This document shows, in pieces, positions 7,282 through 19,489 of a stretch of DNA of 22,723 nucleotides. How positions within the stretch are numbered: the first letter of the stretch is position 1; every line of letters begins with the position of its first letter. The stretch comes from Desulfobacterales bacterium. GTDB taxonomy: Bacteria > Desulfobacterota > Desulfobacteria > Desulfobacterales > Desulfobacteraceae. The position numbers were made by a program, and so were the translations under genes. Under the pieces are notes generated by a model. The model did not search any database. It was given only the letters and a program-made list of their open reading frames with translations, and had not been told where the DNA came from. The stretch covers positions 1 to 22,723 of the forward strand of contig JAKSAU010001134.1 of assembly GCA_022361535.1 (NCBI GenBank). Direction: 5' to 3'.

Positions 7282-7743
7282 TTATTCAAGCTTAAAATAT
7301 TTTGTCTCTGAATGGAGCATTATATGTGTTTCCGTAAAAGTGATTTCTTCAATTTTTTTGAAGTCACTTTTAAATAAAAAATCATTTAGATCATTTATGG
7401 AATCTGCCATGATTTCCATAAATAAGTCGAATTTTCCTGTAGTGACCCATACAGAATTTACATTGGGCAGCACCTGAAGTTTTTTCAACACCTCTGGATG
7501 GAATCTCTGATGAAGGTTAAGCCCGACCAAAGCTGTTACTTTATTTTGAAGTTTAAATGGGTCAACCCTGGCTTCTAGTTTTAAAATTCCTTTTTCCATA
7601 AGCCGATTTACCCTGTTGCTGATTGTCCCTTCTGAAACACCAATATCTTTGGCGATGCTTTTAAAAGATTTTCTTGCATCGTCCTGGAGGGCAAGGATGA
7701 TATTTTTTTCCAGATCGTCAATCATGCCATTTTTTTTTGCCAT
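7282..7743 (-). CDS. Lrp/AsnC family transcriptional regulator
   Basis: The 153 residues match the family length. The N-terminal winged helix-turn-helix is at about 8-60 ('LQDDARKSFKSIAKDIGVSE' then 'TISNRVNRLMEKGIL'). The RAM ligand-binding domain spans about 68-148, with 'VWVTTGKFDLFMEIMAD' as its central strand-turn-strand. Such proteins usually sense amino acids and often control a neighbouring divergent operon. This one is divergent from the ten-gene methyltransferase/TRAP cluster with 411 bases between starts, so it is the natural candidate for controlling that cluster, possibly in response to the imported amino acid or to glycine or threonine. ATG 7743 has a GGATAGAG ribosome site; an internal Met7 is a less likely start. 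Confidence 0.93.
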   Translation of the reverse strand: MAKKNGMIDDLEKNIILALQDDARKSFKSIAKDIGVSEGTISNRVNRLMEKGILKLEARVDPFKLQNKVTALVGLNLHQRFHPEVLKKLQVLPNVNSVWVTTGKFDLFMEIMADSINDLNDFLFKSDFKKIEEITFTETHIMLHSETKYFKLE

Positions 7744-8058: not shown

Positions 8059-8087
8059 TTGACAATAAATAAAAGTTTTTCAATTAT
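8059..8087 (+). promoter_or_regulatory. Candidate sigma-70 promoter of the methyltransferase cluster
   Basis: A perfect TTGACA (8059-8064) is followed after 17 bases by AATTAT (8082-8087, four of six). Transcription would start near 8095, leaving about 60 bases of leader before the ATG at 8155. Confidence 0.5.
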
Positions 8088-8154: not shown

Positions 8155-9624
8155 ATGATAAACTCAGGATCAACACAGGCCCGCCAACCCTACCTGCGAA
8201 TTCTCACCGAAGATCAGATTTTCGAAATCAAACGTGCGGCCTTTGATATTATGTTCAGTGTCGGCTTTAAAGTCTTGCATAAAGAAGCTCGTGAAATGCT
8301 TAAAAAAGCTGGAGCTGTTGTTGAAGGAGAACTGGTCAGGGTCCCGGAATTTATCGTCAAGCAATGCCTGACAACGGCACCTAACGGCTTCACTCTTTAT
8401 GACCGGCTGGGCAACCGGGCTCTTGAGATTGAGGGGAGAAAAAGCTATTACGGCACTTCCACGGGTAGCCCGAGGTTTAAAGATGCCAGAACCGGGGAAA
8501 TTCATCCCACCCGGGTAGAAGACATCGGCATCGGCGCCCGGGTGGCCGACGCCTGCGAAAATATCGATTGGGTTATGCCCATGGGGTCTTCCCAGGACGT
8601 GCCTTCAATTGTTTCCGATCTCTACGATTTTGAGGCTGTGGTCACCAATACCATCAAACCCATTGTTTTTTTGGGTTATTCCGGACGGGGAACCCAGCTG
8701 GTCTTTGATATGGCTGCCGAAGTCGCTGGGGGAAAAGACAAACTGAGGCAAAAACCCTTTCTCGCTCTTTATCCCGAACCCATTACCCCCCTTGTCCAGC
8801 CCGATGAAACCATAGACCGGATTTTTGCGGCAGCGGATAATTTTATTCCCCAGGTTCCAGGGCCCGCACCCCAGTTGGGAGCCACCGCGCCTGCTACCAT
8901 GGCCGGCCTGATTACAATGATTACTGCTGAGTCCCTGATGTGCCTGGTACTGGCACAGCTTCGCCAGCCCGGATGTCCTGTCTGTCTCTCCGGAAATGTT
9001 CAGATCATGAATATGGCCTCAGGTGTATTCGGCGTGGGGTATCCTGAAATGAGTCTTGGGATATCCGCCCAGGCGGAGGTGGCACAATCATTTGACTTGC
9101 CCACCTGGGGCTATGCCGGATGTTCCGATTCCAAGCTCGTGGATGCCCAGGCCGGTCTTGAAAGTGGATTTTCCATTATTACACAGGCCCTTGCAGGGCT
9201 TAATCTTATCCATGATGTGGGTTACTTGGATCAGGCTATGGTCTGTTCGCCAGCCCAGCTGGTCCTGGGCAACGAAGCTGTGGGCATGGCCAGAAAATTT
9301 ATGGAAGGTATGCGTGTAGATCAGGGAACCATTGCCCGCCAGGTAATTGAAGATATCGGTCCCGGAGGCCACTACCTTGCCCACGAACACACACTAAAAC
9401 ACTGCCGGACGGCGGTATGGAACTCAAAACTACTGGCACGTGAGCCTTATGAATCCTGGGAAGCCAAGGGCTCCAAAGATATGGCTGAAAGAATTCAGGA
9501 AAAGCTGGCCGATATCCTTGATAACCACGAAGTACCTGCCATAGATGATGCTGTTCTCGCGCGGATCAGGGAAATCAGGGATGCCGGGGCCAAGGAATTG
9601 CTTGCCATGACTGAAGGCGGTTAA
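8155..9624 (+). CDS. MttB/MtgB family methylamine-type methyltransferase (non-pyrrolysine), paralogue 1
   Basis: The 489 residues cover the whole trimethylamine methyltransferase (MttB) family, usually 470-500. Conserved stretches include 'GSSQDVPSIVSDLYDFEAVV', the loop 'GYAGCSDSKLVDAQAG' in the second half, and 'IEDIGPGGHYLAHEHTLKHC' near the end. Family members move a methyl group from a quaternary or tertiary amine to the cobalt of a partner corrinoid protein. Archaeal-type MttB needs an in-frame amber codon for pyrrolysine; this gene has none and ends in TAA, so it belongs with MtgB-like enzymes that act on betaines (glycine betaine, proline betaine, carnitine and similar). The exact substrate cannot be read from the sequence. 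AAAGGAGG lies just ahead of the ATG. It is the first gene of the cluster. Confidence 0.93.
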   Translation: MINSGSTQARQPYLRILTEDQIFEIKRAAFDIMFSVGFKVLHKEAREMLKKAGAVVEGELVRVPEFIVKQCLTTAPNGFTLYDRLGNRALEIEGRKSYYGTSTGSPRFKDARTGEIHPTRVEDIGIGARVADACENIDWVMPMGSSQDVPSIVSDLYDFEAVVTNTIKPIVFLGYSGRGTQLVFDMAAEVAGGKDKLRQKPFLALYPEPITPLVQPDETIDRIFAAADNFIPQVPGPAPQLGATAPATMAGLITMITAESLMCLVLAQLRQPGCPVCLSGNVQIMNMASGVFGVGYPEMSLGISAQAEVAQSFDLPTWGYAGCSDSKLVDAQAGLESGFSIITQALAGLNLIHDVGYLDQAMVCSPAQLVLGNEAVGMARKFMEGMRVDQGTIARQVIEDIGPGGHYLAHEHTLKHCRTAVWNSKLLAREPYESWEAKGSKDMAERIQEKLADILDNHEVPAIDDAVLARIREIRDAGAKELLAMTEGG

Positions 9625-9811
9625 CGATATACTTCCGGGGATACGCCTGGCCACCGGCACTTTCAGAAATATCTCCGGTTTCACCAGACTTTTTTAATCC
9701 AGAAAAGCGAATGGTTTAATCTTAACCCGATAGGTGCGTCCGGGATTAAAAATAAGTAACAGGCTTAATTTAAACAAAATATCATCACCATATTTAAAAA
9801 GAGGTAGCAAC
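9625..9811. other. 187-base intercistronic gap with hairpin
   Basis: The only long gap inside the cluster. A bulged inverted repeat (TTTAAT 9715-9720 with ATTAAA 9745-9750, and CCCG 9726-9729 with CGGG 9741-9744) could form a hairpin. There is no following T-run, so it looks more like an mRNA processing or stability element than a terminator. Confidence 0.35.
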
Positions 9812-11125
9812 ATGAACAAAAAAGCAGACGCCGTCATCATCGGCTGCGGCATCATCGGTAACTGTATCGCCTTTGAATTGACTAAAAAGGGCTACAAGAC
9901 ACTGAGTGTTGACAAAAACGGGGATTCCGGTGCCGGTTCCACGGCCGGATCATGTGCCATTGTCCGGGCCCATTATTCAACCCTTGAAGGTGTGGCCTTT
10001 GCCTGGGAGGGATTCGACATCTGGAAGAACTGGGAAGATTACTGCGAAGTCAAAGATGACTGGGGTATGGCTAAATACCACCAATGCGGATCCGTCATGG
10101 TAAAATCCCAGGATCGCAACTGGAAAAAAATCCTTGAGCACTGGGATACTGTTGGCGTGCCCTATGAAAATTGGGACGCAGATACCATGGCAGAGCGTCT
10201 TCCAATCTTAAGCAAAACCGAATTTTGGCCCCCCTCCCGTCCTGAAGAAGATGAGGCTTTCTTTGATGGAAAAGATGCAGTCCTTGAAGGCGCGCTTTAC
10301 TGTCCTTCAGCCGGATATATGTCTGATCCCAAGCTGTCCACCCACAATGTCCAAGTGGCTGCTCAGGCTAAGGGTTCAGAGTTTTTATTCAATGCCGAGG
10401 TGGTCGAGATCCTCCAGGAAAACAACCAGGTTACCGGTGTACAACTTAAGGACGGCACTGTGATCGAAACAAGCATCGTCGTTAATGTTGCAGGTCCCCA
10501 TTCAAGCATTATCAATAATATTGCCGGCGTCGAGGAAAAAAATAATATTAAGACCCGTGCAGAACGCCATGAAGTCGCTTATGTGCCCTCGCCTGCAGGA
10601 TTCGATTTCGAAGCGGATGGTGTCCAGATTTCCGACGGCGATAATGGAATCTATATGCGTCCGGAAGTAGGAAACAATATCCTGGTGGGCAGTGAAGATC
10701 CCACCTGCGACACCCACCAGTGGGTAGACGACCCGGATGATTTTAACCGGAACACTACAGATGAGCAGTGGACGGCACAGATTTACAGAGCGGCACGGCG
10801 GTTGCCTGACCTGGGGATTCCCAATATGCACAAGGGGTTTGCCGAGCTCTACGATGTTTCCTCTGACTGGCTTCCCATATACGATAAGAGTGATTTGGGC
10901 GGATTTTACATGGCCTGCGGTTCTTCTGGAAACCAATACAAGAATGCACCTGTAGCCGGTATGATGATGAGCGAACTGATAGAACAGTGCGAAAAAGAAG
11001 GGCTTGATCACGATAATTATCCCCTGCAGTTTAAACTGCCCACCACCGGCGTCACCTTGGACATGGGGGCCTTTTCCCGAAACCGGGAACTGAACCCCGA
11101 TTCCACTTACTCGGTCATTGGTTAA
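9812..11125 (+). CDS. FAD-dependent oxidoreductase, DAO fold (sarcosine oxidase/dimethylglycine dehydrogenase-like)
   Basis: From ATG 9812 there are 437 residues. The start has AAAGAGG at 9798-9804 and the FAD-binding strand begins at once ('ADAVIIGCGIIGN', Gly11/Gly13/Gly16, acidic Asp34 after the second strand); a GTG at 9734 would add 26 unlikely residues. The C-terminal flavin-contacting segment is 'GFYMACGSSGNQYKNAPVAG'. Relatives oxidise N-methyl or amino groups of sarcosine, dimethylglycine and similar amino acids. The folate-binding GcvT-like C-terminal domain of true dimethylglycine dehydrogenases is missing, so the released one-carbon unit would not be captured on the same protein. 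Its place between two MttB-family genes suggests it works on a partly demethylated product. Electron acceptor unknown. Confidence 0.9.
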   Translation: MNKKADAVIIGCGIIGNCIAFELTKKGYKTLSVDKNGDSGAGSTAGSCAIVRAHYSTLEGVAFAWEGFDIWKNWEDYCEVKDDWGMAKYHQCGSVMVKSQDRNWKKILEHWDTVGVPYENWDADTMAERLPILSKTEFWPPSRPEEDEAFFDGKDAVLEGALYCPSAGYMSDPKLSTHNVQVAAQAKGSEFLFNAEVVEILQENNQVTGVQLKDGTVIETSIVVNVAGPHSSIINNIAGVEEKNNIKTRAERHEVAYVPSPAGFDFEADGVQISDGDNGIYMRPEVGNNILVGSEDPTCDTHQWVDDPDDFNRNTTDEQWTAQIYRAARRLPDLGIPNMHKGFAELYDVSSDWLPIYDKSDLGGFYMACGSSGNQYKNAPVAGMMMSELIEQCEKEGLDHDNYPLQFKLPTTGVTLDMGAFSRNRELNPDSTYSVIG

Positions 11126-11162
11126 CTTTTTCTTTAATTATAGAAAGATATAAGGAAACACC

Positions 11163-12602
11163 ATGAATACGCAGATCCCAGAAGCCCAAATACCGGAAGA
11201 AAAACTGGTGAAGCTCGAAAAACTAACCCTGGATATTATGGAGCAGGTTGGAATAAAAATCCTTAGCACCACCTACCTGGATCGGCTTAAAGCGTTGGGA
11301 TTCAAGGTCTGCGATGACCGGATTTACTTTGACCGAGATGAGGTCAATGAAACCCTTGCCAAGGCCCCGGTCTCATTTTCTTTAAAGGCGGTGAATCCGG
11401 ACCATGATCTTGAAATTGGCACAGGGCTGTCCAAGATCGCCCCGGGCTATGGGTGCTCCTCTGTCATGGATGCAGCAGGAAATGTCCGGGATGCATGTTT
11501 TAAAGATCACCTGGAATTGGTGAAATTGACACAAGCCAGTCCCGAACTTCAATTCAACGGTGGAATTCTTGCTCAACCATCGGATGTGCCGGTGGCCCAC
11601 CAACACCTTGCCATGCACTATGCCTCTCTGGTTTATTCGGATAAATGCCTCATGGGAATGCCCGGGTCCCTGTCCCAGGTGAATGACCTTATGGTACTTA
11701 CGGCCATCCGGGCAGGCGGTGAAGAAAAATTAGCCGCCCACCCCAGGTTAATCACCATGGTCAGTCCTATCAGTCCCCTGCAGATTGATGAAATGACCCT
11801 GGATTCTATTGAGGCAGCCGTTCGATACAGCCAGCCCGTCATGGCTTCGTCAGGGGTGGCCGCCGGAACAACCGGACCAATAGATCTGGCTTCCAATGTG
11901 GCCATGGCTGCGGCCGAGTGTCTGGCCGTAATCATGGTTGTCCAGGCAATAAACCCGGGAAACCCTGTTATCTTCGGTCTTCAGTGTTATGGGGCGGACA
12001 TGATATCCGGCAATATCTCCATTGGTTCACCAGCCTATGCGCTCCAGGCTAAATATACGGCAGCCCTTGCAAGACGATGGGGCATGCCCAGCCGGTGCGG
12101 AGGTACCACCAACGACGCTAAATCCCTGTCCGCCCAAGCCGGGTACGAGAGCATGCTCTCCATGTTTACGGCCATGGAAAATAATGTCAGTGTCATTGTC
12201 CACGGAGCCGGTATTCTGGACTCCTTTGCCGGTATCAGTTTTGAGAAATTCATCATGGATCTGGAGATTATCCGTATGAACCGGTTTTACCTGGATGATA
12301 TGGAGATCAGCGATGCGACACTGAACCTGGATCTTATCCAGGAGGTCGGCCCCGGGGGCCTGTTCATCATGTCTATGGATACCCTGACCAAATGCCGGAC
12401 CCACGCCTGGACCCCGGCCGCGGCCCTGAGGGGCAGCGTGAAGGGGATGACACCGGATGAAAAATTGCTGGATAACATTCAAAAGACGCGAAATCAGCTG
12501 CTGGCCGGGTATGTCCAGCCGGAAATTGATGCGGATATCCTCAACGGGATGAATCGATTTATGGCAGATAAAGGGGTGGATCTTTCCATGATTCGGGCAT
12601 AG
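11163..12602 (+). CDS. MttB/MtgB family methyltransferase (non-pyrrolysine), paralogue 2
   Basis: The 479 residues are a second, clearly divergent member of the MttB family. They align with paralogue 1 at 'GGTTNDAKSLSAQAGYES' (versus 'GCSDSKLVDAQAGLES') and 'QEVGPGGLFIMSMDTLTKCR' (versus 'EDIGPGGHYLAHEHTLKHCR'). No amber codon interrupts the frame. The stop itself is TAG, but reading through it would add only three residues before TAA, so it is a normal stop. The expected reaction is methyl transfer from an N-methylated substrate to a corrinoid protein. Two copies with one corrinoid partner suggest two substrates or two successive demethylations. AAGGAA is at 11152-11157, and the gap to the FAD gene is 37 bases. 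Confidence 0.92.
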   Translation: MNTQIPEAQIPEEKLVKLEKLTLDIMEQVGIKILSTTYLDRLKALGFKVCDDRIYFDRDEVNETLAKAPVSFSLKAVNPDHDLEIGTGLSKIAPGYGCSSVMDAAGNVRDACFKDHLELVKLTQASPELQFNGGILAQPSDVPVAHQHLAMHYASLVYSDKCLMGMPGSLSQVNDLMVLTAIRAGGEEKLAAHPRLITMVSPISPLQIDEMTLDSIEAAVRYSQPVMASSGVAAGTTGPIDLASNVAMAAAECLAVIMVVQAINPGNPVIFGLQCYGADMISGNISIGSPAYALQAKYTAALARRWGMPSRCGGTTNDAKSLSAQAGYESMLSMFTAMENNVSVIVHGAGILDSFAGISFEKFIMDLEIIRMNRFYLDDMEISDATLNLDLIQEVGPGGLFIMSMDTLTKCRTHAWTPAAALRGSVKGMTPDEKLLDNIQKTRNQLLAGYVQPEIDADILNGMNRFMADKGVDLSMIRA

Positions 12603-12644
12603 AGCCACCTTTAATATTTATAACAACCTAAAAGGGAGGGAGAA

Positions 12645-13640
12645 ATGAAAAAAAGACTTGTTATTTTAATGGTAGCCACACTGGCAGTCGCTTTAACAGC
12701 CGGAAATGTCATGGCCAAGAAACGTTGGCGGATTGCCGGTATAGCTCCGGTGGACCATGCCTCCACCAAAATCCTGAAGGCCGCTGCAAAGGAAATCAAC
12801 GGTAAGACCGACGATAAGTATAGGCTTAAAGTATATCCGGCCAGCCAGTTGGGGGACTACACCCTGGTACTCAATGAAGTGGCACAGGGCGCCATTGAAC
12901 TGGCGGACATCTCCATTACACCTCAGTTGGACAAAGCCTTGGGAATCGTATATATGCCTTGTCTGGCCTCCACCTATGACGATATTGATCGGGTTTATGC
13001 CAAAGGTTCCAATTTTTATTCCCTCTATGAAGAGTTGCTGGCTAAGCACAACATAAAGCTGCTGGGTCTTGACGTCCAGGGGTTTGCCGGTGTGGGTATG
13101 GTAAAAGAACCCAAGAACTATAAAGATATCGACCTGGCCAAGGATAGGATGATCCGGGTTCCGCCGATTGAGACCTGGAAAACCGTTGCTGAAGCACTGA
13201 ATTATAAGACCGTCACCATTAACTGGGGTGACCTCTACCCTGCCATGCAGTCCGGGGTTTGCGACGGCTGGATCGCCGGTACCCCGTCCTGGAATTACAT
13301 CGCTTTTAAAGACCTTCTCAATTACTATATTCCTTACAACACCACAGTAGATTCCACCGCTTACATTATGAGCATGGACAAGTGGAAATCTCTGAGTGCG
13401 GAAGAACAGAAAGTGTTTCAGGATGCCTTCACAACAGCTGCTGCAAAAAGCCGTGAGAATGCAAGAAAAGATGATGCCGGCTATATCCAGAAAATGGCTG
13501 ACAAAGGCATTAAAATCCTGGACCTGACAGAAGAAGAAACCCGAGCCATTGCCAAAAAGGTTCACAACAAGGTCTGGCCCCAGCTGACTGAAACCCTGGG
13601 CAAGGATATCATGGACCGTCTTGACAAGGATATCCAATAA
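12645..13640 (+). CDS. dctP: TRAP transporter substrate-binding protein DctP
   Basis: The 331 residues begin with a Sec signal peptide (basic MKKR, hydrophobic core, cleavage likely after Ala24 in 'NVMA-KK'), so the protein works in the periplasm. The DctP fold follows: the ligand-clamping arginine is in 'MIRVPP' (Arg171), and the hinge region reads 'WGDLYPAMQSGVCDGW'. TRAP receptors usually bind carboxylates through this arginine. The pocket region holds several tryptophans (178, 194, 209, 216), which could also hold a quaternary ammonium group; that is inference. GGGAGGG precedes the ATG. It forms a complete tripartite set with the next two genes and probably supplies the methyltransferase substrate. 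Confidence 0.94.
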   Translation: MKKRLVILMVATLAVALTAGNVMAKKRWRIAGIAPVDHASTKILKAAAKEINGKTDDKYRLKVYPASQLGDYTLVLNEVAQGAIELADISITPQLDKALGIVYMPCLASTYDDIDRVYAKGSNFYSLYEELLAKHNIKLLGLDVQGFAGVGMVKEPKNYKDIDLAKDRMIRVPPIETWKTVAEALNYKTVTINWGDLYPAMQSGVCDGWIAGTPSWNYIAFKDLLNYYIPYNTTVDSTAYIMSMDKWKSLSAEEQKVFQDAFTTAAAKSRENARKDDAGYIQKMADKGIKILDLTEEETRAIAKKVHNKVWPQLTETLGKDIMDRLDKDIQ

Positions 13641-13707
13641 TTGATGCGGTATCCCGGCCTGGTCGTCCACCGGGTCGGGACACCCGGATCCTATGGGAGG
13701 CAGTAAG

Positions 13708-14334
13708 ATGCAGCAATCAATAAACACCTTGGTAGAGGCGGAACCGGTTCGGTGCCAGGACACTATTGCGCCCCCGGAAGACAATACAGAAAACGGAATA
13801 CAGTCGGTCCTGGACAGGTATAATACGACCCTGGACCACATCCCCTTCTGGCAGAAATTCGAAAAAGTCCACAGATTCTTCCTTGTTACCTCATCGGTTC
13901 TCATTACCACAGCCATATGCATTGCATCGGCCATGCGGTATTTTTTCAAACTGGATTTCTTCGGACTTGAAGAATATGTCCTTATTGCCGCCTGTGTGCT
14001 TTACTTTGTCGGCGCAGCTCAGGGTAGCTTTGAACGCTCCCATATTTCCGCTGACTTTATGGAAAATTTTATGGCAAAGAGAGGGGGATTGGGCAAACTG
14101 CTTTTTATCCAGAAAACCATTGAGCTTGTCATGAGTTATATTTTCATTTATTGGGGGTTTCTCATGATCCAGTGGTGCTGGAATGCCTGGCCTGTGACCC
14201 CGGTATGGCGGATCCCATTCCTCATCCCCGAATCCATTGTCTGCCTTTCCTTTATCATGATGTCGATTTACACCACGGCCCACTATGTACAACTTATAAA
14301 AATTATTTTTGGTAAAAAAGGAGGCGCTTCATGA
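13708..14334 (+). CDS. dctQ: TRAP transporter small permease DctQ
   Basis: The start at ATG 13708 is chosen because GGGAGG (13695-13700) lies at the right distance; an in-frame ATG at 13693 overlaps that ribosome site. The 208 residues have a long hydrophilic N-terminus (about 50 residues) and four membrane helices, with 'FGLEEYVLIAACVLYFVGAA' as the typical second helix. The stop overlaps the next start in ATGA, so DctQ and DctM should be translationally coupled. DctQ joins the receptor-fed large permease in the inner membrane. Confidence 0.92.
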   Translation: MQQSINTLVEAEPVRCQDTIAPPEDNTENGIQSVLDRYNTTLDHIPFWQKFEKVHRFFLVTSSVLITTAICIASAMRYFFKLDFFGLEEYVLIAACVLYFVGAAQGSFERSHISADFMENFMAKRGGLGKLLFIQKTIELVMSYIFIYWGFLMIQWCWNAWPVTPVWRIPFLIPESIVCLSFIMMSIYTTAHYVQLIKIIFGKKGGAS

Positions 14335-15623
14335 TTGTTCTGGGAACTGTAGGCATTCTTGTTGTGTTGTTGATGATCGGCGTCCCCATCGTATTTACCT
14401 TTGGTGCAGCAACGCTGTTCATTGCCCTTGCAGGGGATTACAACATGGCCACCCTGCTGCCGGCGGGGTACAACCGAATGAACAATATGGTCCTGGTGGC
14501 CGTTCCGCTGTTTATCTATTCCGGCGCCTTGATCCAGAAAGGAAATATTGCCGAACCCCTTATCGGCATGGCCGAAATGGTATTTAAAAAGGTCAGAGGG
14601 GCTATGGCCATTGTTGCTGTGGTGGCATCTGCCGCTTTTGGCTCCATCTCGGGCTCGGCCGCTGCCACCCTGTCCTGCATGGGCTCCATCCTTCTGCCCA
14701 AGATGTACAAAGACAGATACCCCAGGGCCATTGCCAATGCCCTGGTGATCAATGCCTCGCCTTTGGGGCTTTTGATTCCCCCTTCGGCTGACCTCATTCT
14801 TTTTGCCTGGATCGCCCAGCAGTCGGTACTTGCCTGTTTCCTGGCTACTGTGATTCCGGGATTTATTCTTATGACACTGCTGGTCATTGTCAGTCTGGTG
14901 ATGCTTCGGAATAAAGACCTGGCCCGTGATCCGGAACTGGAAAAACCATTAACTGCAGAATTCGTCACCACTCGTGTAAAAACCGCAAGTCCGGCCATGA
15001 CGATGCCTATCATCGTTTTGGGCGGCATTTATGGCGGGTTTGTCACACCGACAGAGGCTGCCGGGCTGTCTGTTCTGGTCGCTGTCATCCTGGGACGTTA
15101 TGTTTACAATGGGCTGGACACCGGGGCTTTTAAAGATGCCTCAGTGGATTCTGCCGTGACCTCGGGCGTTTTCATGGTCATGCTTTTTGTCGTAATGATC
15201 ATGAGCCGTCTGTTTGTATTTGAAGATTTTTCCCAAATCACTCTGGATTTCCTTTACAGTGTCTCGGAAAACAAGTGGGTGGTGCTGTTCATGGTCAACC
15301 TGCTCATGATCATCATCGGCATGCTCATGGATGATGCCTCGGGTATCCTGATCTCCACCCCCATTCTTATCCCTGTGGTTCAGGAGTTAGGGATTTCTCC
15401 CATCCATTTTGCCGCCATCCAGGGGGTGAACCTTGGTATGGGGACCATTACACCGCCCACGGCACCCCTTTTGTATCTTGGAGCAAGGGTTGGTAAAACC
15501 CCTGTACCGGAGATGCTCAAGCCGACGATGATCTATATTATCTTTGCCTGGATACCTACACTTATACTTACCACCGTATTCCCGCAGATTGCGTTGTTCC
15601 TTCCCGAGTTCTTTTTAGGATAA
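14331..15623 (+). CDS. dctM: TRAP transporter large permease DctM
   Basis: The 430 residues are almost wholly hydrophobic, with about a dozen membrane helices, and match the usual DctM length. Family segments include 'AAFGSISGSAAATLSCMGSI', 'YGGFVTPTEAAGLSVL' and 'GMGTITPPTAPLLYLGA'. It is the ion-coupled transport subunit, driven by a sodium or proton gradient. It overlaps dctQ by four bases. The substrate is not set by this subunit but is presumably the N-methylated amino acid handled by the flanking enzymes. Confidence 0.95.
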   Translation: MIVLGTVGILVVLLMIGVPIVFTFGAATLFIALAGDYNMATLLPAGYNRMNNMVLVAVPLFIYSGALIQKGNIAEPLIGMAEMVFKKVRGAMAIVAVVASAAFGSISGSAAATLSCMGSILLPKMYKDRYPRAIANALVINASPLGLLIPPSADLILFAWIAQQSVLACFLATVIPGFILMTLLVIVSLVMLRNKDLARDPELEKPLTAEFVTTRVKTASPAMTMPIIVLGGIYGGFVTPTEAAGLSVLVAVILGRYVYNGLDTGAFKDASVDSAVTSGVFMVMLFVVMIMSRLFVFEDFSQITLDFLYSVSENKWVVLFMVNLLMIIIGMLMDDASGILISTPILIPVVQELGISPIHFAAIQGVNLGMGTITPPTAPLLYLGARVGKTPVPEMLKPTMIYIIFAWIPTLILTTVFPQIALFLPEFFLG

Positions 15624-15659
15624 GGGGTTCTCGGATAAGGACATATAAAGGAGATAACA

Positions 15660-16703
15660 ATGAAAACAATGAAGGCCTTGGTCAAGGCCGAACCCAAACC
15701 CGGACTGGTTCTTCAGGATGTTCCGGTGCCTGAGATCGCCCATAATGAGGTGTTGATTAAGATCTTAAAGACGGCCATCTGCGGTACTGACGTCCATATT
15801 TACAACTGGGATGCCTGGTCACAGCAGACCATTCCTGTCCCCATGCATGTGGGCCATGAGTTCGTGGGGACTGTGGCTGCTGTGGGGTCCCATGTGACCG
15901 ATTTCAAGCCCGGCGACCTGGTCTCCGGGGAAGGGCATCTCGTCTGCGGCCACTGCCGGAACTGCCTGGCCGGCCGCCGTCATTTGTGCAAGAACACCAA
16001 GGGGGTGGGGGTGAATCGTCCGGGGGCCTTTGCCGAATACCTGGCTATTCCCGTTACAAACGTATGGTATTGTGATCCTGACATTCCCCTGGATATCCTG
16101 GCCTGCTTTGACCCCTTGGGCAATGCTACCCATACGGCCCTTTCCTTTGATGTACTGGGCGAAGACGTATTGATCACAGGGGCCGGCCCCATCGGGTGCA
16201 TGGCCGCATCCATCGCACGCCATGCCGGCGCACGCCATGTGGTGGTTACTGATGTTAACCCCTTCCGCCTGGATCTGGCGAAGAAAGCCGGTGCCACATA
16301 TACCGTGGATGTGTCAAAGGACAAACTAAAAGATGCCCAGAAAACCCTGGGTATGAAAGAAGGCTTTGACGTGGCCATGGAAATGTCAGGCAACCCGGCC
16401 GCGCTGAACGACATTCTGGACAATATGTGCCACGGCGGTAAGATCGCCATGCTGGGCATTATGCCCGATGAAACCAATATTGATTGGAACAAGGTGGTGT
16501 TCAACATGCTCACCATCAAAGGCATTTACGGCCGGGAAATGTATGAGACCTGGTACAAAATGACCACCATGATTCAGACCGGTCTTGATATCAGCTCCAT
16601 TATCACCCATCATTTCCACTATACTGACTTTCAGAAAGGTTTTGACGTCATGAGTTCCGGCAATTCCGGCAAGGTTGTGCTGACCTGGGCCGACATGGAA
16701 TAA
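15660..16703 (+). CDS. tdh: L-threonine 3-dehydrogenase (zinc-dependent, NAD)
   Basis: The 347 residues closely resemble E. coli Tdh from memory, for example '[20 protein letters not shown]' and '[17 protein letters not shown]'. The catalytic zinc ligands Cys41 and His66-Glu67 and the structural-zinc cysteines 96, 99, 102 and 110 are all present. The NAD Rossmann motif is 'GAGPIG' (174-179). The enzyme oxidises L-threonine to 2-amino-3-ketobutyrate. AAGGAGA precedes the ATG. The next gene, 17 bases on, is kbl, the usual partner. In this cluster the true substrate could also be an N-methylated threonine-like compound, which sequence alone cannot tell. Confidence 0.93.
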
Positions 16704-16720
16704 AAAAAGGAATAACCACA

Positions 16721-17947
16721 ATGTCATTAGATAAATTAGATTCAAGCCTTGCCCAGGAAATAGACGTTCTAAAAGAGGAAGGACGGGCAAAAATTCCAGA
16801 AAGAATTATCAACGAGTACATTCCTCCCAAAGGGGAATTTGGCCCCCGGTATCGGATTCAAGGCAGTGACAATGAATTTATCCGCCTGAATTCCAATTCC
16901 TACCTTTCCCTTTCCTTTCATCCCGCCGTGTTGAAGGCAGCAGATGATGCCACAGCCGCCTTTGGTGTGGGGCCGGGTGCGGTACGGTTCATTGACGGAA
17001 CCTTTGCTCCCCATGCCCGGTTGGAAGAGCGGATTGCCGCATTTACAGAAAAGCCGGCAGCTAAAATATTTAATTCCGCCTATACCTCCAACTGTGGCCT
17101 GGCTCTGTCCATTTCTAACAAGAAAACCCATTGGATCGGGGATCAGCTCAACCATAATTCAATCATCCGCGCCATGCGTATTACCAATATCCCCAGTTCC
17201 AACAAGGGGATTTTCAAGCACAATGACATGGAAGACTTAAAGCGCTGTCTGGATGAAGTCTCTCCTGAAATGGAGCGGGTGGTGGTGGTCTTTGACGGGA
17301 TTTTTTCCATGCGCGGCGATTATGCGCCCATTTCTGAAATTGTTGAGATCTGCAAAGCCTATGACGGAAAATTCAAGGACGGGGTGATCACCGTTGTTGA
17401 CGACTCCCACGGTATCGGCGCCTATGGCGCAACAGGCAGGGGGACCCCTGAATATGCCGGCGCCTGGCCGGACATCGTTGTAGGCACATTCGGCAAGGCC
17501 TTTGGGGTGAACGGCGGTTTTATTGCCGCCAGCAATATCGTCATAGAAGCGGTTCGCCAGAAGGCTGATACCTACATTTATACCAACCCCTTAAGTGCTG
17601 CGGACTGCGCTGCGGCCACCACTGCCATAGACATCTGTGACAGCCCGGAAGGACTGGAACGTCTGGCCCATCTTGGCGGTGTGACTGCCAGGCTCAGGCA
17701 GGGCCTGGACGATCTCGGCCTGGAATCCATTCCCGGTCCCCATCCGGTTGTGCCGCTGATGGTCAGGGATACAGCCAAAACCCATACCCTTGTGAAAAAT
17801 CTCTATGATAACGGGGTCCTGGTGGTGGGCCTAACATTTCCTGTAGTACCCAAGGGGGATGAAACCATCCGCCTCCAGGTCAATGCCTGCCATACCAATG
17901 CTGATATTGACCGGGTTTTGGAATTAATTTCAACCTTCAAGCCATAA
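16721..17947 (+). CDS. kbl: Glycine C-acetyltransferase (2-amino-3-ketobutyrate CoA ligase), PLP enzyme
   Basis: The 408 residues are an alpha-oxoamine synthase. Visible motifs are 'LNHNSII' (144-149), the PLP-ring aspartate-histidine segment 'VVDDSHGIGAYG' (226-236) and the Schiff-base lysine in 'GTFGKAFG' (Lys259). Kbl cleaves 2-amino-3-ketobutyrate with CoA to glycine and acetyl-CoA, or works in reverse. The tight coupling to tdh supports this over the related BioF or serine palmitoyltransferase roles. From memory it is more distant from E. coli Kbl than the neighbouring Tdh is from its counterpart, with several insertions and 'SNSYLSLSFHP' in place of 'NNYLGLANHP'. A changed acyl or amino-acid preference is therefore possible. 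Confidence 0.87.
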   Translation: MSLDKLDSSLAQEIDVLKEEGRAKIPERIINEYIPPKGEFGPRYRIQGSDNEFIRLNSNSYLSLSFHPAVLKAADDATAAFGVGPGAVRFIDGTFAPHARLEERIAAFTEKPAAKIFNSAYTSNCGLALSISNKKTHWIGDQLNHNSIIRAMRITNIPSSNKGIFKHNDMEDLKRCLDEVSPEMERVVVVFDGIFSMRGDYAPISEIVEICKAYDGKFKDGVITVVDDSHGIGAYGATGRGTPEYAGAWPDIVVGTFGKAFGVNGGFIAASNIVIEAVRQKADTYIYTNPLSAADCAAATTAIDICDSPEGLERLAHLGGVTARLRQGLDDLGLESIPGPHPVVPLMVRDTAKTHTLVKNLYDNGVLVVGLTFPVVPKGDETIRLQVNACHTNADIDRVLELISTFKP

Positions 17948-17987
17948 AGCAAAAATTTTAAACTATATTTGATTCAAGGAGAGAACA

Positions 17988-18620
17988 ATGACAGATTTCA
18001 ATGCAATGACCGAAGCTCTGGTAGCCTGTGATGCCGCAAAACTCACAGATCTGGTAAACAATGCCCTGGCCGCCGACACCCCTGCCCAGGACATTCTGAA
18101 CAACGGTCTGATTTCAGGTATGGACATTGTGGGCGAAAAAATGGAGGCCGGCGACATGTTCATCCCGGAAGTCCTTATGGCGGCCCAGGCCATGGGATCC
18201 TGCGTGGAAATACTTAAACCCCTTTTGGGAGAAGGTGAAGGTGCTTCCGGCGGTTCCGTAATCATCGGGACAGTCAAAGGAGACCTCCACGACATCGGCA
18301 AAAACCTTGTTGCCATGATGATGGAAAGTGCCGGTCTTGAAGTCCACAATGTCGGTGTTGATATTGCCCCGGAAGATTTCGTGGCCCAGATCAAGGAAAA
18401 GAACGCTCAGATCGTCTGTCTCTCAGCGCTGCTCACCACCACCATGCCCGCAATGAAGCAGACAGTTGACGCCATTGTGGAGGCAGGCCTCAGGGAGCAG
18501 GTTAAAATCATGGTGGGCGGTGCGCCCGTGACCCAGACATTTGCCGATGAAATCGGGGCTGACGGATTTGCTGCCGATGCCGGGTCTGCATCCAAGATGG
18601 CCAAAACCTTCATCAACTAA
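17988..18620 (+). CDS. Corrinoid (B12-binding) methyltransferase protein, MtbC/MtgC type
   Basis: The 210 residues have the two expected parts: an N-terminal helical cap domain (about 1-85) and a Rossmann-like B12 domain. The lower-axial cobalt ligand lies in 'GDLHDIGKN' (His101); 'SALLTTTM' (146-153) and 'VGGAPV' (177-182) bind the corrinoid tail. It carries the methyl group between the MttB-family enzymes and the THF methyltransferase encoded ten bases downstream. No gene for a reductive activase (RamA-type Fe-S protein) is present in the window, although such systems need one to rescue cob(II)alamin. AAGGAGAG precedes the ATG. Confidence 0.95.
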   Translation: MTDFNAMTEALVACDAAKLTDLVNNALAADTPAQDILNNGLISGMDIVGEKMEAGDMFIPEVLMAAQAMGSCVEILKPLLGEGEGASGGSVIIGTVKGDLHDIGKNLVAMMMESAGLEVHNVGVDIAPEDFVAQIKEKNAQIVCLSALLTTTMPAMKQTVDAIVEAGLREQVKIMVGGAPVTQTFADEIGADGFAADAGSASKMAKTFIN

Positions 18621-18630
18621 CGGGGCTGCT

Positions 18631-19431
18631 ATGTTTGAAGTAATCGGAGAAAGAATTAATACGTCCAGAAAACTGGTCCAGGCTGCGGTTGCAGAACGCA
18701 ACGCAGAATACATCATCGATGATGTGCAAAAACAGCAGGACGCCGGGGCAACTTTTATTGACGTTAATGCCGGTGCCCGCATCGGCCATGAGGAAGAGGA
18801 CATGCGCTGGCTCCTGGATACTATCCAACCCGTAACCAAGATTCCATTAGCCTTGGATAGCCCGGACCCAGCCATCCTCGAAATGGCATTTGCCATGGTG
18901 GACCAGATACCCATGATCAACTCCATCTCACTTGAAAAAGAACGGTTTGATGCCATGATGCCTTTTCTTTCAGGCAAGGAGTGCCGTGTCATTGCCCTGT
19001 GCATGGATGATGCCGGCATGCCCAACTCTGCCGACGATATCCTGGGCCGGGCCAAAATCCTGGTGGGAGAACTTAACGGCATCGGCATCCCCACCGCCAG
19101 TATCTACGTGGATCCCCTGGTACAGCCCATTTCCACGGACTTCAACAAGGGTGTCATGGTGCTGGATGCCGTCCGAGCAATCAAGGCCGAATTTCCGGAC
19201 GTCCATATCACCGGCGGTCTGTCCAATATCTCTTATGGGCTCCCCCAGCGCCACATCATCAACCGCACCTTTGTAACCCTGATGATGGATGCGGGCATGG
19301 ACTCGGCCATTATTGATCCACTGGATAAAAAAATTATGGCCTCCATCCGCACGGCAGATATGCTTCTGGGACATGACCAGTTCTGTATGGAGTACCTCAA
19401 GGGTGTTCGCTCAGGCGCTATAGAAAGTTAA
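18631..19431 (+). CDS. Methylcorrinoid:tetrahydrofolate methyltransferase (MtgA/AcsE-like)
   Basis: The 266 residues form a pterin-binding TIM barrel: 'VIGERIN' (4-10), 'FIDVNAG' (42-48), 'LALDSPDP' (73-80), 'INSIS' (96-100), 'DPLVQPIS' (161-168) and 'GGLSNISYGLPQR' (195-207). It would pass the methyl group from the corrinoid protein to THF, giving methyl-THF for the Wood-Ljungdahl methyl branch. That target, rather than coenzyme M, points to a bacterium oxidising or assimilating methyl groups. The start at 18631 is the last sensible ATG; an upstream in-frame ATG at 18541 would overlap the corrinoid gene by 80 bases. The ribosome site is weak, so coupling to the preceding gene is likely. It is the last gene before a strong terminator. 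Confidence 0.93.
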   Translation: MFEVIGERINTSRKLVQAAVAERNAEYIIDDVQKQQDAGATFIDVNAGARIGHEEEDMRWLLDTIQPVTKIPLALDSPDPAILEMAFAMVDQIPMINSISLEKERFDAMMPFLSGKECRVIALCMDDAGMPNSADDILGRAKILVGELNGIGIPTASIYVDPLVQPISTDFNKGVMVLDAVRAIKAEFPDVHITGGLSNISYGLPQRHIINRTFVTLMMDAGMDSAIIDPLDKKIMASIRTADMLLGHDQFCMEYLKGVRSGAIES

Positions 19432-19451
19432 AAAATTTCCTCTTTACATTA

Positions 19452-19489
19452 CCCTGTTTCTGATCCTTGGAAGCAGGGTTTTCTTTTTT
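19452..19489 (+). terminator. Rho-independent terminator of the methyltransferase cluster
   Basis: A nine-pair stem, CCCTGTTTC (19452-19460) with GAAGCAGGG (19470-19478), one pair being G-U, is followed by TTTTCTTTTTT. It lies 20 bases after the last stop codon of the cluster. Confidence 0.88.

What the first reader, a model, noticed from the sequence alone, without database searches (positions are those of the whole stretch)
8155..19431. Operon joining corrinoid N-demethylation to a threonine/glycine (Tdh-Kbl) module and a TRAP importer
Ten genes on one strand, mostly 10-45 bases apart and closed by a strong terminator, encode two MttB-family methyltransferases, a flavin amine oxidoreductase, a full TRAP transporter, Tdh, Kbl, a corrinoid protein and a THF methyltransferase. 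Known MtgB-type systems take one methyl group from glycine betaine and leave dimethylglycine. Here the set looks able to take the nitrogen fully bare and then use the carbon skeleton. Two models fit. (a) Glycine betaine is taken to glycine, with Kbl-Tdh connecting glycine to threonine. (b) The substrate is an N-methylated threonine-like amino acid that is demethylated to threonine and cleaved to glycine and acetyl-CoA. Model b explains every enzyme and gives products that all enter the Wood-Ljungdahl route. I know of no described pathway with this set.
Basis: partly seen in the sequence, partly recalled or inferred. Interest (0 to 1): 0.78.

Follow-up and report, generated by a model that had tools for sequence, protein, structure and literature searches.

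The report
Operon for stripping methyls off threonine
A ten-gene operon, apparently from a sulfate-reducing bacterium, joins enzymes that remove methyl groups from nitrogen to the two enzymes that break down threonine, and the pairing recurs in related bacteria, so it may be an undescribed way of eating methylated threonine; no enzyme has been assayed.

Summary
In detail: ten same-strand genes (8155-19431) encode two pyrrolysine-free MttB-family methyltransferases, a sarcosine-oxidase-fold flavoprotein (DAO), a TRAP importer, threonine dehydrogenase (Tdh), a Kbl-type enzyme, a corrinoid protein and a THF methyltransferase, beside a divergent AsnC/Lrp gene. It is not unique. MttB2 orthologues occur at 17 places in 16 of 193 relatives; Tdh and/or Kbl follow in 14 of the 15 that can be read. 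Sub-combinations recur: MttB2-Tdh-Kbl, DAO-Tdh-Kbl, MttB1-Kbl, and AsnC//Tdh-Kbl alone. Model b (a methylated threonine-like amino acid is demethylated to threonine, then cleaved) fits better than model a (glycine betaine): neither MttB is close to known MtgB (31%, 36%), and genomes with this DAO also hold another DAO of a sarcosine-oxidase/ETF-linked group. But MttB2 keeps four of five residues that docking predicted to hold glycine betaine, some MttB1 copies stand without Tdh or Kbl, and no substrate is known. Verdict: new variant of a known kind; a conserved, testable, unproven pathway.

The parts
7282..7743 (-). AsnC/Lrp-family regulator, divergent from the operon
   Evidence: PF13412, PF13404, PF01037; homologues at 65-77% identity lie beside mttB/tdh/kbl genes in 6 of 6 places
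8059..8087 (+). promoter-like site TTGACA-17-AATTAT ahead of mttB1
   Evidence: 10 of 12 consensus positions; such sites are near chance frequency
8155..9624 (+). MttB1: pyrrolysine-free MttB-superfamily methyltransferase, Cys at the Pyl position (motif PTWGYAGCSDSK)
   Evidence: PF06253 306 bits; TIGR02369 363 bits, below cut-off 525; position from the alignment to 7xcl; motif in relatives
9121..9220 (+). Rfam PYLIS_3 match inside mttB1 (no TAG codon)
   Evidence: 40.8 bits, gathering 38
9806..11125 (+). DAO: FAD amine/N-methyl-amino-acid dehydrogenase of sarcosine oxidase fold (a GTG start at 9734 is possible)
   Evidence: PF01266; AlphaFold2 pLDDT 89.5, Foldseek best hits L-proline dehydrogenase and heterotetrameric sarcosine oxidase beta
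11163..12602 (+). MttB2: pyrrolysine-free MttB-superfamily methyltransferase with a partly MtgB-like predicted pocket
   Evidence: PF06253 352 bits; Y94, R309, H345, F353 kept, N199 to Ser
12645..13640 (+). DctP: TRAP solute-binding protein
   Evidence: PF03480, NF037995 above cut-off
13693..14334 (+). DctQ: TRAP small permease
   Evidence: PF04290
14331..15623 (+). DctM: TRAP large permease
   Evidence: PF06808, TIGR00786 above cut-off
15660..16703 (+). Tdh: L-threonine 3-dehydrogenase
   Evidence: NF003808 580 bits (cut-off 380), TIGR00692 486 (458); 510 bits to PDB 5kia
16721..17947 (+). Kbl-type 2-amino-3-ketobutyrate CoA ligase (divergent)
   Evidence: 293 bits to NF005394 (cut-off 460); the three best PDB matches are Kbl
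17988..18620 (+). corrinoid protein (MtgC/MtbC-like)
   Evidence: PF02310, PF02607; NCBIfam MtbC/MtgC matches below cut-off
18628..19431 (+). methyl-THF:corrinoid methyltransferase (MtrH/AcsE/MtgA-like)
   Evidence: PF00809; NF005719 322 bits, cut-off 259
19451..19479 (+). intrinsic terminator-like hairpin with T-run
   Evidence: 13 pairs

Best explanation
The operon is a catabolic unit for an N-methylated threonine (threonine betaine, dimethyl- or methylthreonine, or a close beta-hydroxy alpha-amino acid). Inferred steps: the TRAP system imports the zwitterion; MttB2 and MttB1 move methyl groups to the corrinoid protein and the MtrH-like enzyme passes them to THF; the DAO oxidatively removes what remains, giving reduced FAD (probably to ETF) and a formaldehyde-level C1 unit; free threonine is oxidised by Tdh to 2-amino-3-ketobutyrate, which Kbl splits with CoA into glycine and acetyl-CoA. 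An AsnC/Lrp regulator controls the set. Shown here: gene content, families, conservation of the linkage, recurrence of sub-combinations. Not shown: substrate, order of demethylation, electron acceptor, transcription.
For: Tdh and/or Kbl lie downstream on the same strand of 14 of 15 determinable MttB2 orthologues (17 loci in 16 of 193 genomes; L031 and L036 end at contig edges, L032 lacks them). Of 12 MttB1 matches at 76% identity or more in 389 genomes, leaving out one fragment at a contig end, 10 lie in loci with Tdh and/or Kbl (not L241, L237). The ten-gene order recurs in L034, with a foreign ORF after mttB1, and without the last two genes in L001. Parts of the set recur with Tdh/Kbl: MttB2-Tdh-Kbl (L037, L043), DAO-Tdh-Kbl behind an AsnC gene (L126), MttB1-Kbl behind an AsnC gene with Tdh elsewhere (L236, L256). 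Tdh is canonical; Kbl lies next to Tdh in 17 of 20 Kbl loci read first and 15 of 17 read later, one locus in both. The DAOs of this locus type are one clade of 6 rows, 100/100; Tdh was seen in five, L031 is cut off before it. Some related MttB/DAO sets sit near other amino-acid genes (L160, L047; MttB pairs in L049, L051; an MttB in L057). N-methyl- and N,N-dimethylthreonine exist in bacterial flagellin glycans (PMC11833859, passages).
Against: No substrate is known; 'threonine betaine' occurs in no paper of the library. DAO and TRAP are absent from most of the 17 MttB2 loci, and CorP and MtrH follow only in L034. Tdh-Kbl is common without these MttBs: 57 of 193 relatives have near-full-length Kbl at 70% identity or more (my count), and 44 of these have no MttB2 match at 58% or more, so it mainly serves ordinary threonine. 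Kbl is below the family cut-off. Desulfospira-like G027 has an MttB1 at 86% (L241) and an MttB2 at 65% (L032) without Tdh or Kbl nearby. MttB1 relatives at 68-71% sit with ABC importers or neither (L238-L240). In G073 Kbl is beside MttB1 and SHMT without Tdh, which would also fit a glycine theme. MttB2 keeps most of the predicted glycine betaine pocket.
Confidence: 0.45

Rival explanations
1. Model a: the substrate is glycine betaine (or dimethylglycine); MttB2, MttB1 and DAO take it to glycine, and Tdh-Kbl is attached because both routes meet at glycine.
For: MttB2 keeps Y94, R309, H345 and F353 of the docking-predicted MtgB pocket in 17 of 17 orthologues at 58% or more (residues from PMC6855144, passages). 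In the tree D. hafniense MtgB is the first branch beside the MttB2 clade (support 86, not starred). The DAO clade is the weakly supported (92/84) sister of a group that includes the DAOs of SoxB-SoxA-SoxG-DAO-EtfB-EtfA operons. L236 has SHMT, a glycine enzyme, behind AsnC//MttB1-Kbl. Desulfobacterium isolates convert betaine to dimethylglycine (PMC6716910, passages).
Against: Identity to MtgB is only 36% and 31%. A 46% MtgB homologue lies elsewhere in G001 (L053). The five genomes with this DAO clade also hold a DAO at 57-60% identity, in four of them placed in the Sox/ETF-linked clade. Kbl and Tdh do no obvious catabolic work on glycine (inference).
Confidence: 0.22
2. Two separate catabolic routes, one for a methylated osmolyte and one for threonine, share one AsnC-controlled operon without a shared intermediate.
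For: AsnC//Tdh-Kbl exists alone (L127, L128) and AsnC//MttB2 alone (L032), so the units are separable. Of 12 genomes in which no DAO was seen at the MttB2 locus, 8 have one Kbl match and it is the one beside MttB2 (G046 has two; three have none, two of them with contigs ending after Tdh), so ordinary threonine use runs from these operons too.
Against: Sub-combinations (DAO-Tdh-Kbl, MttB1-Kbl, MttB2-Tdh-Kbl) keep one demethylation gene tied to Tdh or Kbl while others are missing, which is more than shared regulation predicts.
Confidence: 0.23
3. The substrate is another methylated amine (for example a betaine-lipid headgroup or a different hydroxy amino acid) and Tdh/Kbl here have shifted specificity.
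For: Kbl scores below the cut-off of each of the 11 NCBIfam families listed; MttB1 has a Tyr/Cys pair at the pocket (Cys in 119 of 120 homologues listed).
Against: Tdh passes two equivalog cut-offs, and Kbl of the same subfamily partners Tdh in relatives without MttB.
Confidence: 0.1

Closest known systems
MtgB-MtgC-MtgA glycine betaine demethylation (Desulfitobacterium, Methanolobus)
   Same: pyrrolysine-free MttB-superfamily methyltransferase with a corrinoid protein; MttB2 keeps 4 of 5 docking-predicted pocket residues
   Different: 36% and 31% identity only; two MttBs; adds DAO, TRAP, Tdh, Kbl; MtgB stops at dimethylglycine (PMC6855144, passages)
MtpB, MtcB, MtyB, MthB systems of Eubacterium limosum
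   Same: MttB-superfamily members for acidic quaternary amines; MtqC and MtqA serve MtpB, MtcB and MtyB (PMC12155760, passages)
   Different: no oxidase and no amino-acid catabolic enzymes with them in the passages read; sequences not compared here
Tdh-Kbl threonine catabolism
   Same: Tdh canonical, Kbl-type enzyme next to it
   Different: placed in one operon with demethylation genes; Kbl is a divergent subfamily
Sarcosine oxidase / dimethylglycine dehydrogenase family
   Same: DAO fold and family; some paralogues sit in Sox/ETF operons
   Different: 439 aa with no folate-binding domain found; the NCBIfam cut-offs are missed
Stepwise betaine demethylation to sarcosine in strain DCMF
   Same: a second demethylation by a methyltransferase was proposed (PMC9768040, passages)
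   Different: ends in sarcosine reductase, not in a free amino acid feeding Tdh-Kbl

Membership tests
MttB superfamily (COG5598/PF06253) | full-length PF06253 above the curated cut-off | tested here: met
   306 and 352 bits, cut-off 25
Trimethylamine methyltransferase MttB | in-frame TAG (pyrrolysine) and TIGR02369 cut-off 525 | tested here: not met
   no internal stop; 363 and 220 bits; Cys (MttB1) or Thr (MttB2) at the Pyl position
Glycine betaine methyltransferase MtgB | close orthology to D. hafniense MtgB | tested here: not met
   36% (MttB2) and 31% (MttB1) identity; MtgB branches outside the 81-row MttB2 clade, but deep branches of that quick tree are unsure: L053, 46% to MtgB, falls elsewhere
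Glycine betaine methyltransferase MtgB | docking-predicted pocket Y94, N199, R309, H345, F353 | tested here: inconclusive
   MttB2 4 of 5, MttB1 1 of 5; the prediction itself rests on docking (PMC6855144, passages)
Glycine betaine methyltransferase MtgB | methyl transfer from glycine betaine | not testable with these tools
   needs an enzyme assay
L-threonine 3-dehydrogenase (Tdh) | NCBIfam equivalog cut-offs | tested here: met
   NF003808 580/380, TIGR00692 486/458
Glycine C-acetyltransferase (Kbl) | NF005394 / TIGR01822 equivalog cut-off | tested here: not met
   293/460 and 259/493 bits; it may still work like a Kbl: best PDB matches and Tdh adjacency
Sarcosine oxidase / N-methyl-tryptophan oxidase | NCBIfam equivalog or subfamily cut-offs | tested here: not met
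   best 77 bits against 257; the fold matches this family
MtgC-type corrinoid protein | NF047996 / NF047995 / TIGR02370 cut-offs | tested here: not met
   199/370, 185/310, 197/215 bits; both B12-binding domains present
Methyl-THF:corrinoid methyltransferase | NF005719 cut-off | tested here: met
   322/259 bits
TRAP transporter | DctP, DctQ and DctM together | tested here: met
   PF03480, PF04290, PF06808

The most novel reading that the evidence does not exclude
The set strips three N-methyl groups by three different enzymes: MttB2 (MtgB-like pocket) takes the first from the quaternary amine, MttB1 (Glu at the N199 position, Trp at R309, Cys at the Pyl position) takes the second from the tertiary amine without pyrrolysine, and the flavoprotein takes the third, delivering free threonine to Tdh-Kbl. 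Related MttB-DAO sets would do the same for other amino-acid betaines, each plugged into its own amino-acid pathway. A pyrrolysine-free corrinoid demethylase for a tertiary amine would be new to my knowledge (recalled, not searched exhaustively).
Probability: 0.15. Interest if true: 0.8.

Novelty: new variant of a known kind. Interest (0 to 1): 0.52.

Why it matters
Only six MttB-superfamily members had an identified physiological substrate in 2025 (PMC12155760, passages), while single genomes carry many (22 matches in G001). A conserved link to a downstream amino-acid pathway is a rare clue to substrate. If right, it would show that anaerobes can strip an amino-acid betaine to the free amino acid and burn it completely, and the MttB-DAO pairing would offer a way to predict substrates of other MttB proteins from their neighbours.

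Tried and rejected
Pyrrolysine reading: the Rfam PYLIS_3 match in mttB1 suggested it, but there is no TAG and the Pyl position is Cys; rejected. MttB1 or MttB2 as a close MtgB orthologue: rejected on identity; the tree is too weak in its deep branches to decide kinship beyond that. AsnC as a faithful marker of the regulon: only partly; of 20 AsnC matches in 18 of 193 genomes, 8 lie beside these genes (one of them, in G027, carries stops); of the other 12 I read four (L275-L278), and none lies beside them. The 'GYAGC' motif as a Tdh-specific mark: rejected, relatives at 68-76% identity without Tdh nearby share it (L237-L240). A second Tdh of G012 on a 4-kb contig (L255) was hoped to be the missing end of its operon; inconclusive. 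A plasmid search with MttB2 gave 195 records, all under 60% identity, 31.6% the best of the five listed. No test with structure coordinates was possible. The DAO neighbour count rests on loci that I chose from the places listed, not on a random sample, and the aldehyde oxidoreductase proteins were chosen because their starts looked like that family.


Full report
1. What is there. The window holds ten + strand genes between 8155 and 19431: mttB1, dao, mttB2, dctP, dctQ, dctM, tdh, kbl, a corrinoid-protein gene and an mtrH-like gene, spaced by 181, 37, 42, 52, -4, 36, 17, 40 and 7 bases. A hairpin with a T-run follows at 19451-19479, and an AsnC/Lrp gene runs the other way at 7282-7743. Families are confirmed by Pfam and NCBIfam. 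Tdh passes two equivalog cut-offs. Kbl does not (293 against 460 bits), though its three best PDB relatives are Kbl enzymes. Both MttBs lack an in-frame TAG, and both miss the cut-off for trimethylamine methyltransferase. No whole genome is held for the window; its organism is inferred from its nearest relatives.

2. Conservation. One scan of public genomes with MttB2 gave one close relative, L001, an uncultured Desulfobacteraceae. Its genome, G001, was used as centre for 193 genomes (G001 included). MttB2 orthologues at 58-83% identity occur at 17 places in 16 genomes (where at most eight candidates per genome were scored). In 14 of the 15 where the downstream side can be read, Tdh and/or Kbl follow on the same strand; L031 and L036 end at contig edges and L032 has none. 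MttB1 lies upstream in 11 of the 17 (a fragment in L035); it is absent in L032, L036, L037 and L043, and L038 and L045 end at contig edges. DAO is at the locus in L001, L031, L033 and L034, TRAP in L001, L031 and L034 only. The corrinoid protein and MtrH-like gene follow Kbl in L034 but not in L001. In a wider draw, 389 genomes of the order, MttB1 at 76% identity or more was matched at 12 places (a fragment in G057 left out); 10 lie in loci with Tdh and/or Kbl, and L241 (G027, 86%) and L237 (G022, 76%, near a contig start) do not. G027, which holds L034, is probably Desulfospira joergensenii: proteins of that name lie on a contig of the same length, 2,428,772 bases. In L034 an ORF of 499 aa without a Pfam match separates mttB1 from dao; an ORF with the same sequence start lies in L241.

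3. The threonine module is wider. Near-full-length Kbl at 70% identity or more occurs in 57 of 193 genomes by my count (80 of 193 have any match at E <= 1e-60); 44 of the 57 have no MttB2 match at 58% or more. In the first 20 Kbl loci fetched, Tdh is adjacent in 17, allowing one short ORF between (not L132, L143, L145; L144 and L145 hold Kbl at only 57% and 49%). In 17 more, it is adjacent in 15 (not L265; L270 has three ORFs between); one of these, L260, repeats L140. In L127 and L128 the bare unit is AsnC divergent from tdh-kbl. So in the window the methyl-transfer genes lie between a regulator and a threonine module that exist together without them elsewhere.

4. Partial sets. G046 has AsnC divergent from DAO-Tdh-Kbl (L126) and, elsewhere, MttB1-MttB2-Tdh-Kbl with about 1.8 kb between MttB2 and Tdh (L044). 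G073 has AsnC divergent from MttB1-Kbl, with SHMT behind AsnC (L236), while its only Tdh match sits at C81, in a neighbourhood like that of G084 where Tdh-Kbl stand together (L256 and L272). AsnC homologues of 65-77% identity lie beside these genes in 6 of 6 places (G012 twice, G001, G009, G027, G073); so do the 56% one of G046 and a G027 copy that carries stops. Of the other 12 of 20 matches, four were read and do not. These partial sets are the main reason to think that the demethylation genes work with Tdh-Kbl rather than merely beside them. Against this, G027 also has MttB1 (L241) and AsnC//MttB2 (L032) without Tdh or Kbl.

5. The flavoprotein. The AlphaFold2 model (pLDDT 89.5) matches L-proline dehydrogenase, sarcosine oxidase beta and related folds. 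DAO-type relatives occur in 63 of 193 genomes at E <= 1e-50. Among 70 DAO genes in loci that I chose to fetch, 30 have an MttB within two genes (22 directly upstream on the same strand), 14 sit in Sox/ETF-type operons, 7 behind TRAP genes and 19 elsewhere. The Sox and ETF names come from one locus, L163, tested by family searches (SoxB 398 bits and SoxA 683, both below their subfamily cut-offs; GCV_T folate domains in SoxA; EtfB below cut-off; nothing for the third gene) and are carried to the others by BLAST. The six DAOs of the window's locus type are one clade (100/100), placed weakly (92/84) beside a group that includes 13 of the 14 Sox/ETF ones. Seven of seven proteins tested upstream of MttB1-DAO pairs, chosen because they looked so, and the one beside AsnC in L126, are aldehyde ferredoxin oxidoreductases, which would fit disposal of an aldehyde product (inference). 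Some related sets lie near amino-acid genes: saccharopine-dehydrogenase-family genes (L160); an aminotransferase and PanB (L047); MttB1/MttB2-like pairs without DAO lie near class III aminotransferases on the facing strand (L049, one ORF between; L051); a further MttB (L057) has a BCCT importer, a P5C-reductase-like gene and a corrinoid protein 87% identical to the window's. These contexts were noticed, not counted against a background, and most MttB-DAO pairs show ABC importers or other genes rather than such genes.

6. The methyltransferases. In a tree of 133 rows (quick method, many long branches) window MttB1 falls in a clade of 11 rows: nine labelled as Tdh loci (the window among them), plus L031 and L034 of the same locus type. 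The clade is nested among DAO-paired MttBs; MttB2 is in a separate large clade, beside which D. hafniense MtgB is the first branch (support 86, not starred). Identity to MtgB is 31% and 36%; L053 of G001 has 46% but falls elsewhere in the tree, so its deep branches are not to be trusted. At residues that PMC6855144 predicted by docking to hold glycine betaine (passages), MttB2 and 17 of 17 orthologues keep Y94, R309, H345, F353 and have Ser for N199; MttB1 and 10 of 10 close orthologues have T, E, W, H, A in the order 94, 199, 309, 345, 353. At the Pyl position MttB1 homologues have Cys in 119 of 120 listed, the window's own included, while 19 of 22 relatives at 44-58% identity have Ala. MttB1 relatives at 68-76% identity share the Cys motif in other contexts. 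This leaves open that MttB1 and MttB2 act on different methylation states.

7. Which substrate? Known MttB-superfamily substrates other than trimethylamine and phosphocholine are quaternary amines with a carboxylate (PMC12155760, passages), which suits an amino-acid betaine. Glycine betaine is possible, but the five genomes with this DAO clade (G001, G012, G027, G046, G075) each hold a further DAO at 57-60% identity; in G012, G027 and G046 I read it in a Sox/ETF operon; the G001 copy that I read (L161) falls in that clade but stands alone; the second G001 copy and the G075 one were not read. N-methyl- and N,N-dimethylthreonine occur in flagellin glycans (PMC11833859, passages). 'Threonine betaine' is in no paper of the library, and 'trimethylthreonine' in none of the 15 listed of the 28 papers found.

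8. Literature. Searches for MttB, corrinoid, threonine dehydrogenase, betaine, Desulfobacterium, Desulfobacula, Desulfospira and methylated threonines list no paper whose title or abstract start describes this gene set; none of the 25 papers listed holds 'threonine dehydrogenase', and none of the 10 listed of 61 holds 'trimethylamine methyltransferase'. The library is open-access only and the lists are capped. Passages were read in nine papers; the others were seen as search listings.

9. Verdict. The mechanism is a gene-context hypothesis without any biochemical test. I rate model b at 0.45, glycine betaine 0.22, co-regulation without a shared intermediate 0.23, other substrates 0.10.

Noticed in passing
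window 9121-9220: Rfam PYLIS_3 (pyrrolysine insertion element of mttB) reaches its gathering score in an mttB homologue without TAG, so the model can report plain mttB homology.
   Followed up: yes
L126 11979-13871; L174, L181, L188, L193, L197, L200, L204: Aldehyde ferredoxin oxidoreductase genes directly upstream of MttB-DAO pairs and beside AsnC//DAO-Tdh-Kbl.
   Followed up: partly
L147, L148, L149, L152, L155, L162, L163: Conserved SoxB-SoxA-SoxG-DAO-EtfB-EtfA-type operon in relatives, perhaps a dimethylglycine/sarcosine dehydrogenase system linked to ETF.
   Followed up: partly
L160 and L194: MttB-DAO pair with a peptide-type ABC importer; in L160 also two saccharopine-dehydrogenase-family genes and an MmgE/PrpD gene, perhaps for a methylated lysine-like compound.
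   Followed up: partly
L150, L164, L185, L186, L187, L196, L202: DAO behind a TRAP importer; in L150 a URO-D-family gene, tested by Pfam, lies a few genes upstream.
   Followed up: partly
G001 genome: 22 MttB-family matches in one genome, four with an in-frame TAG (perhaps pyrrolysine).
   Followed up: no
L256 and L236: In G073 kbl is missing from behind tdh and sits beside mttB1 instead.
   Followed up: yes
L001 4974-6419: A sodium:dicarboxylate symporter family gene (a family that includes Ser/Thr importers; recalled) lies between the AsnC gene and the operon.
   Followed up: partly
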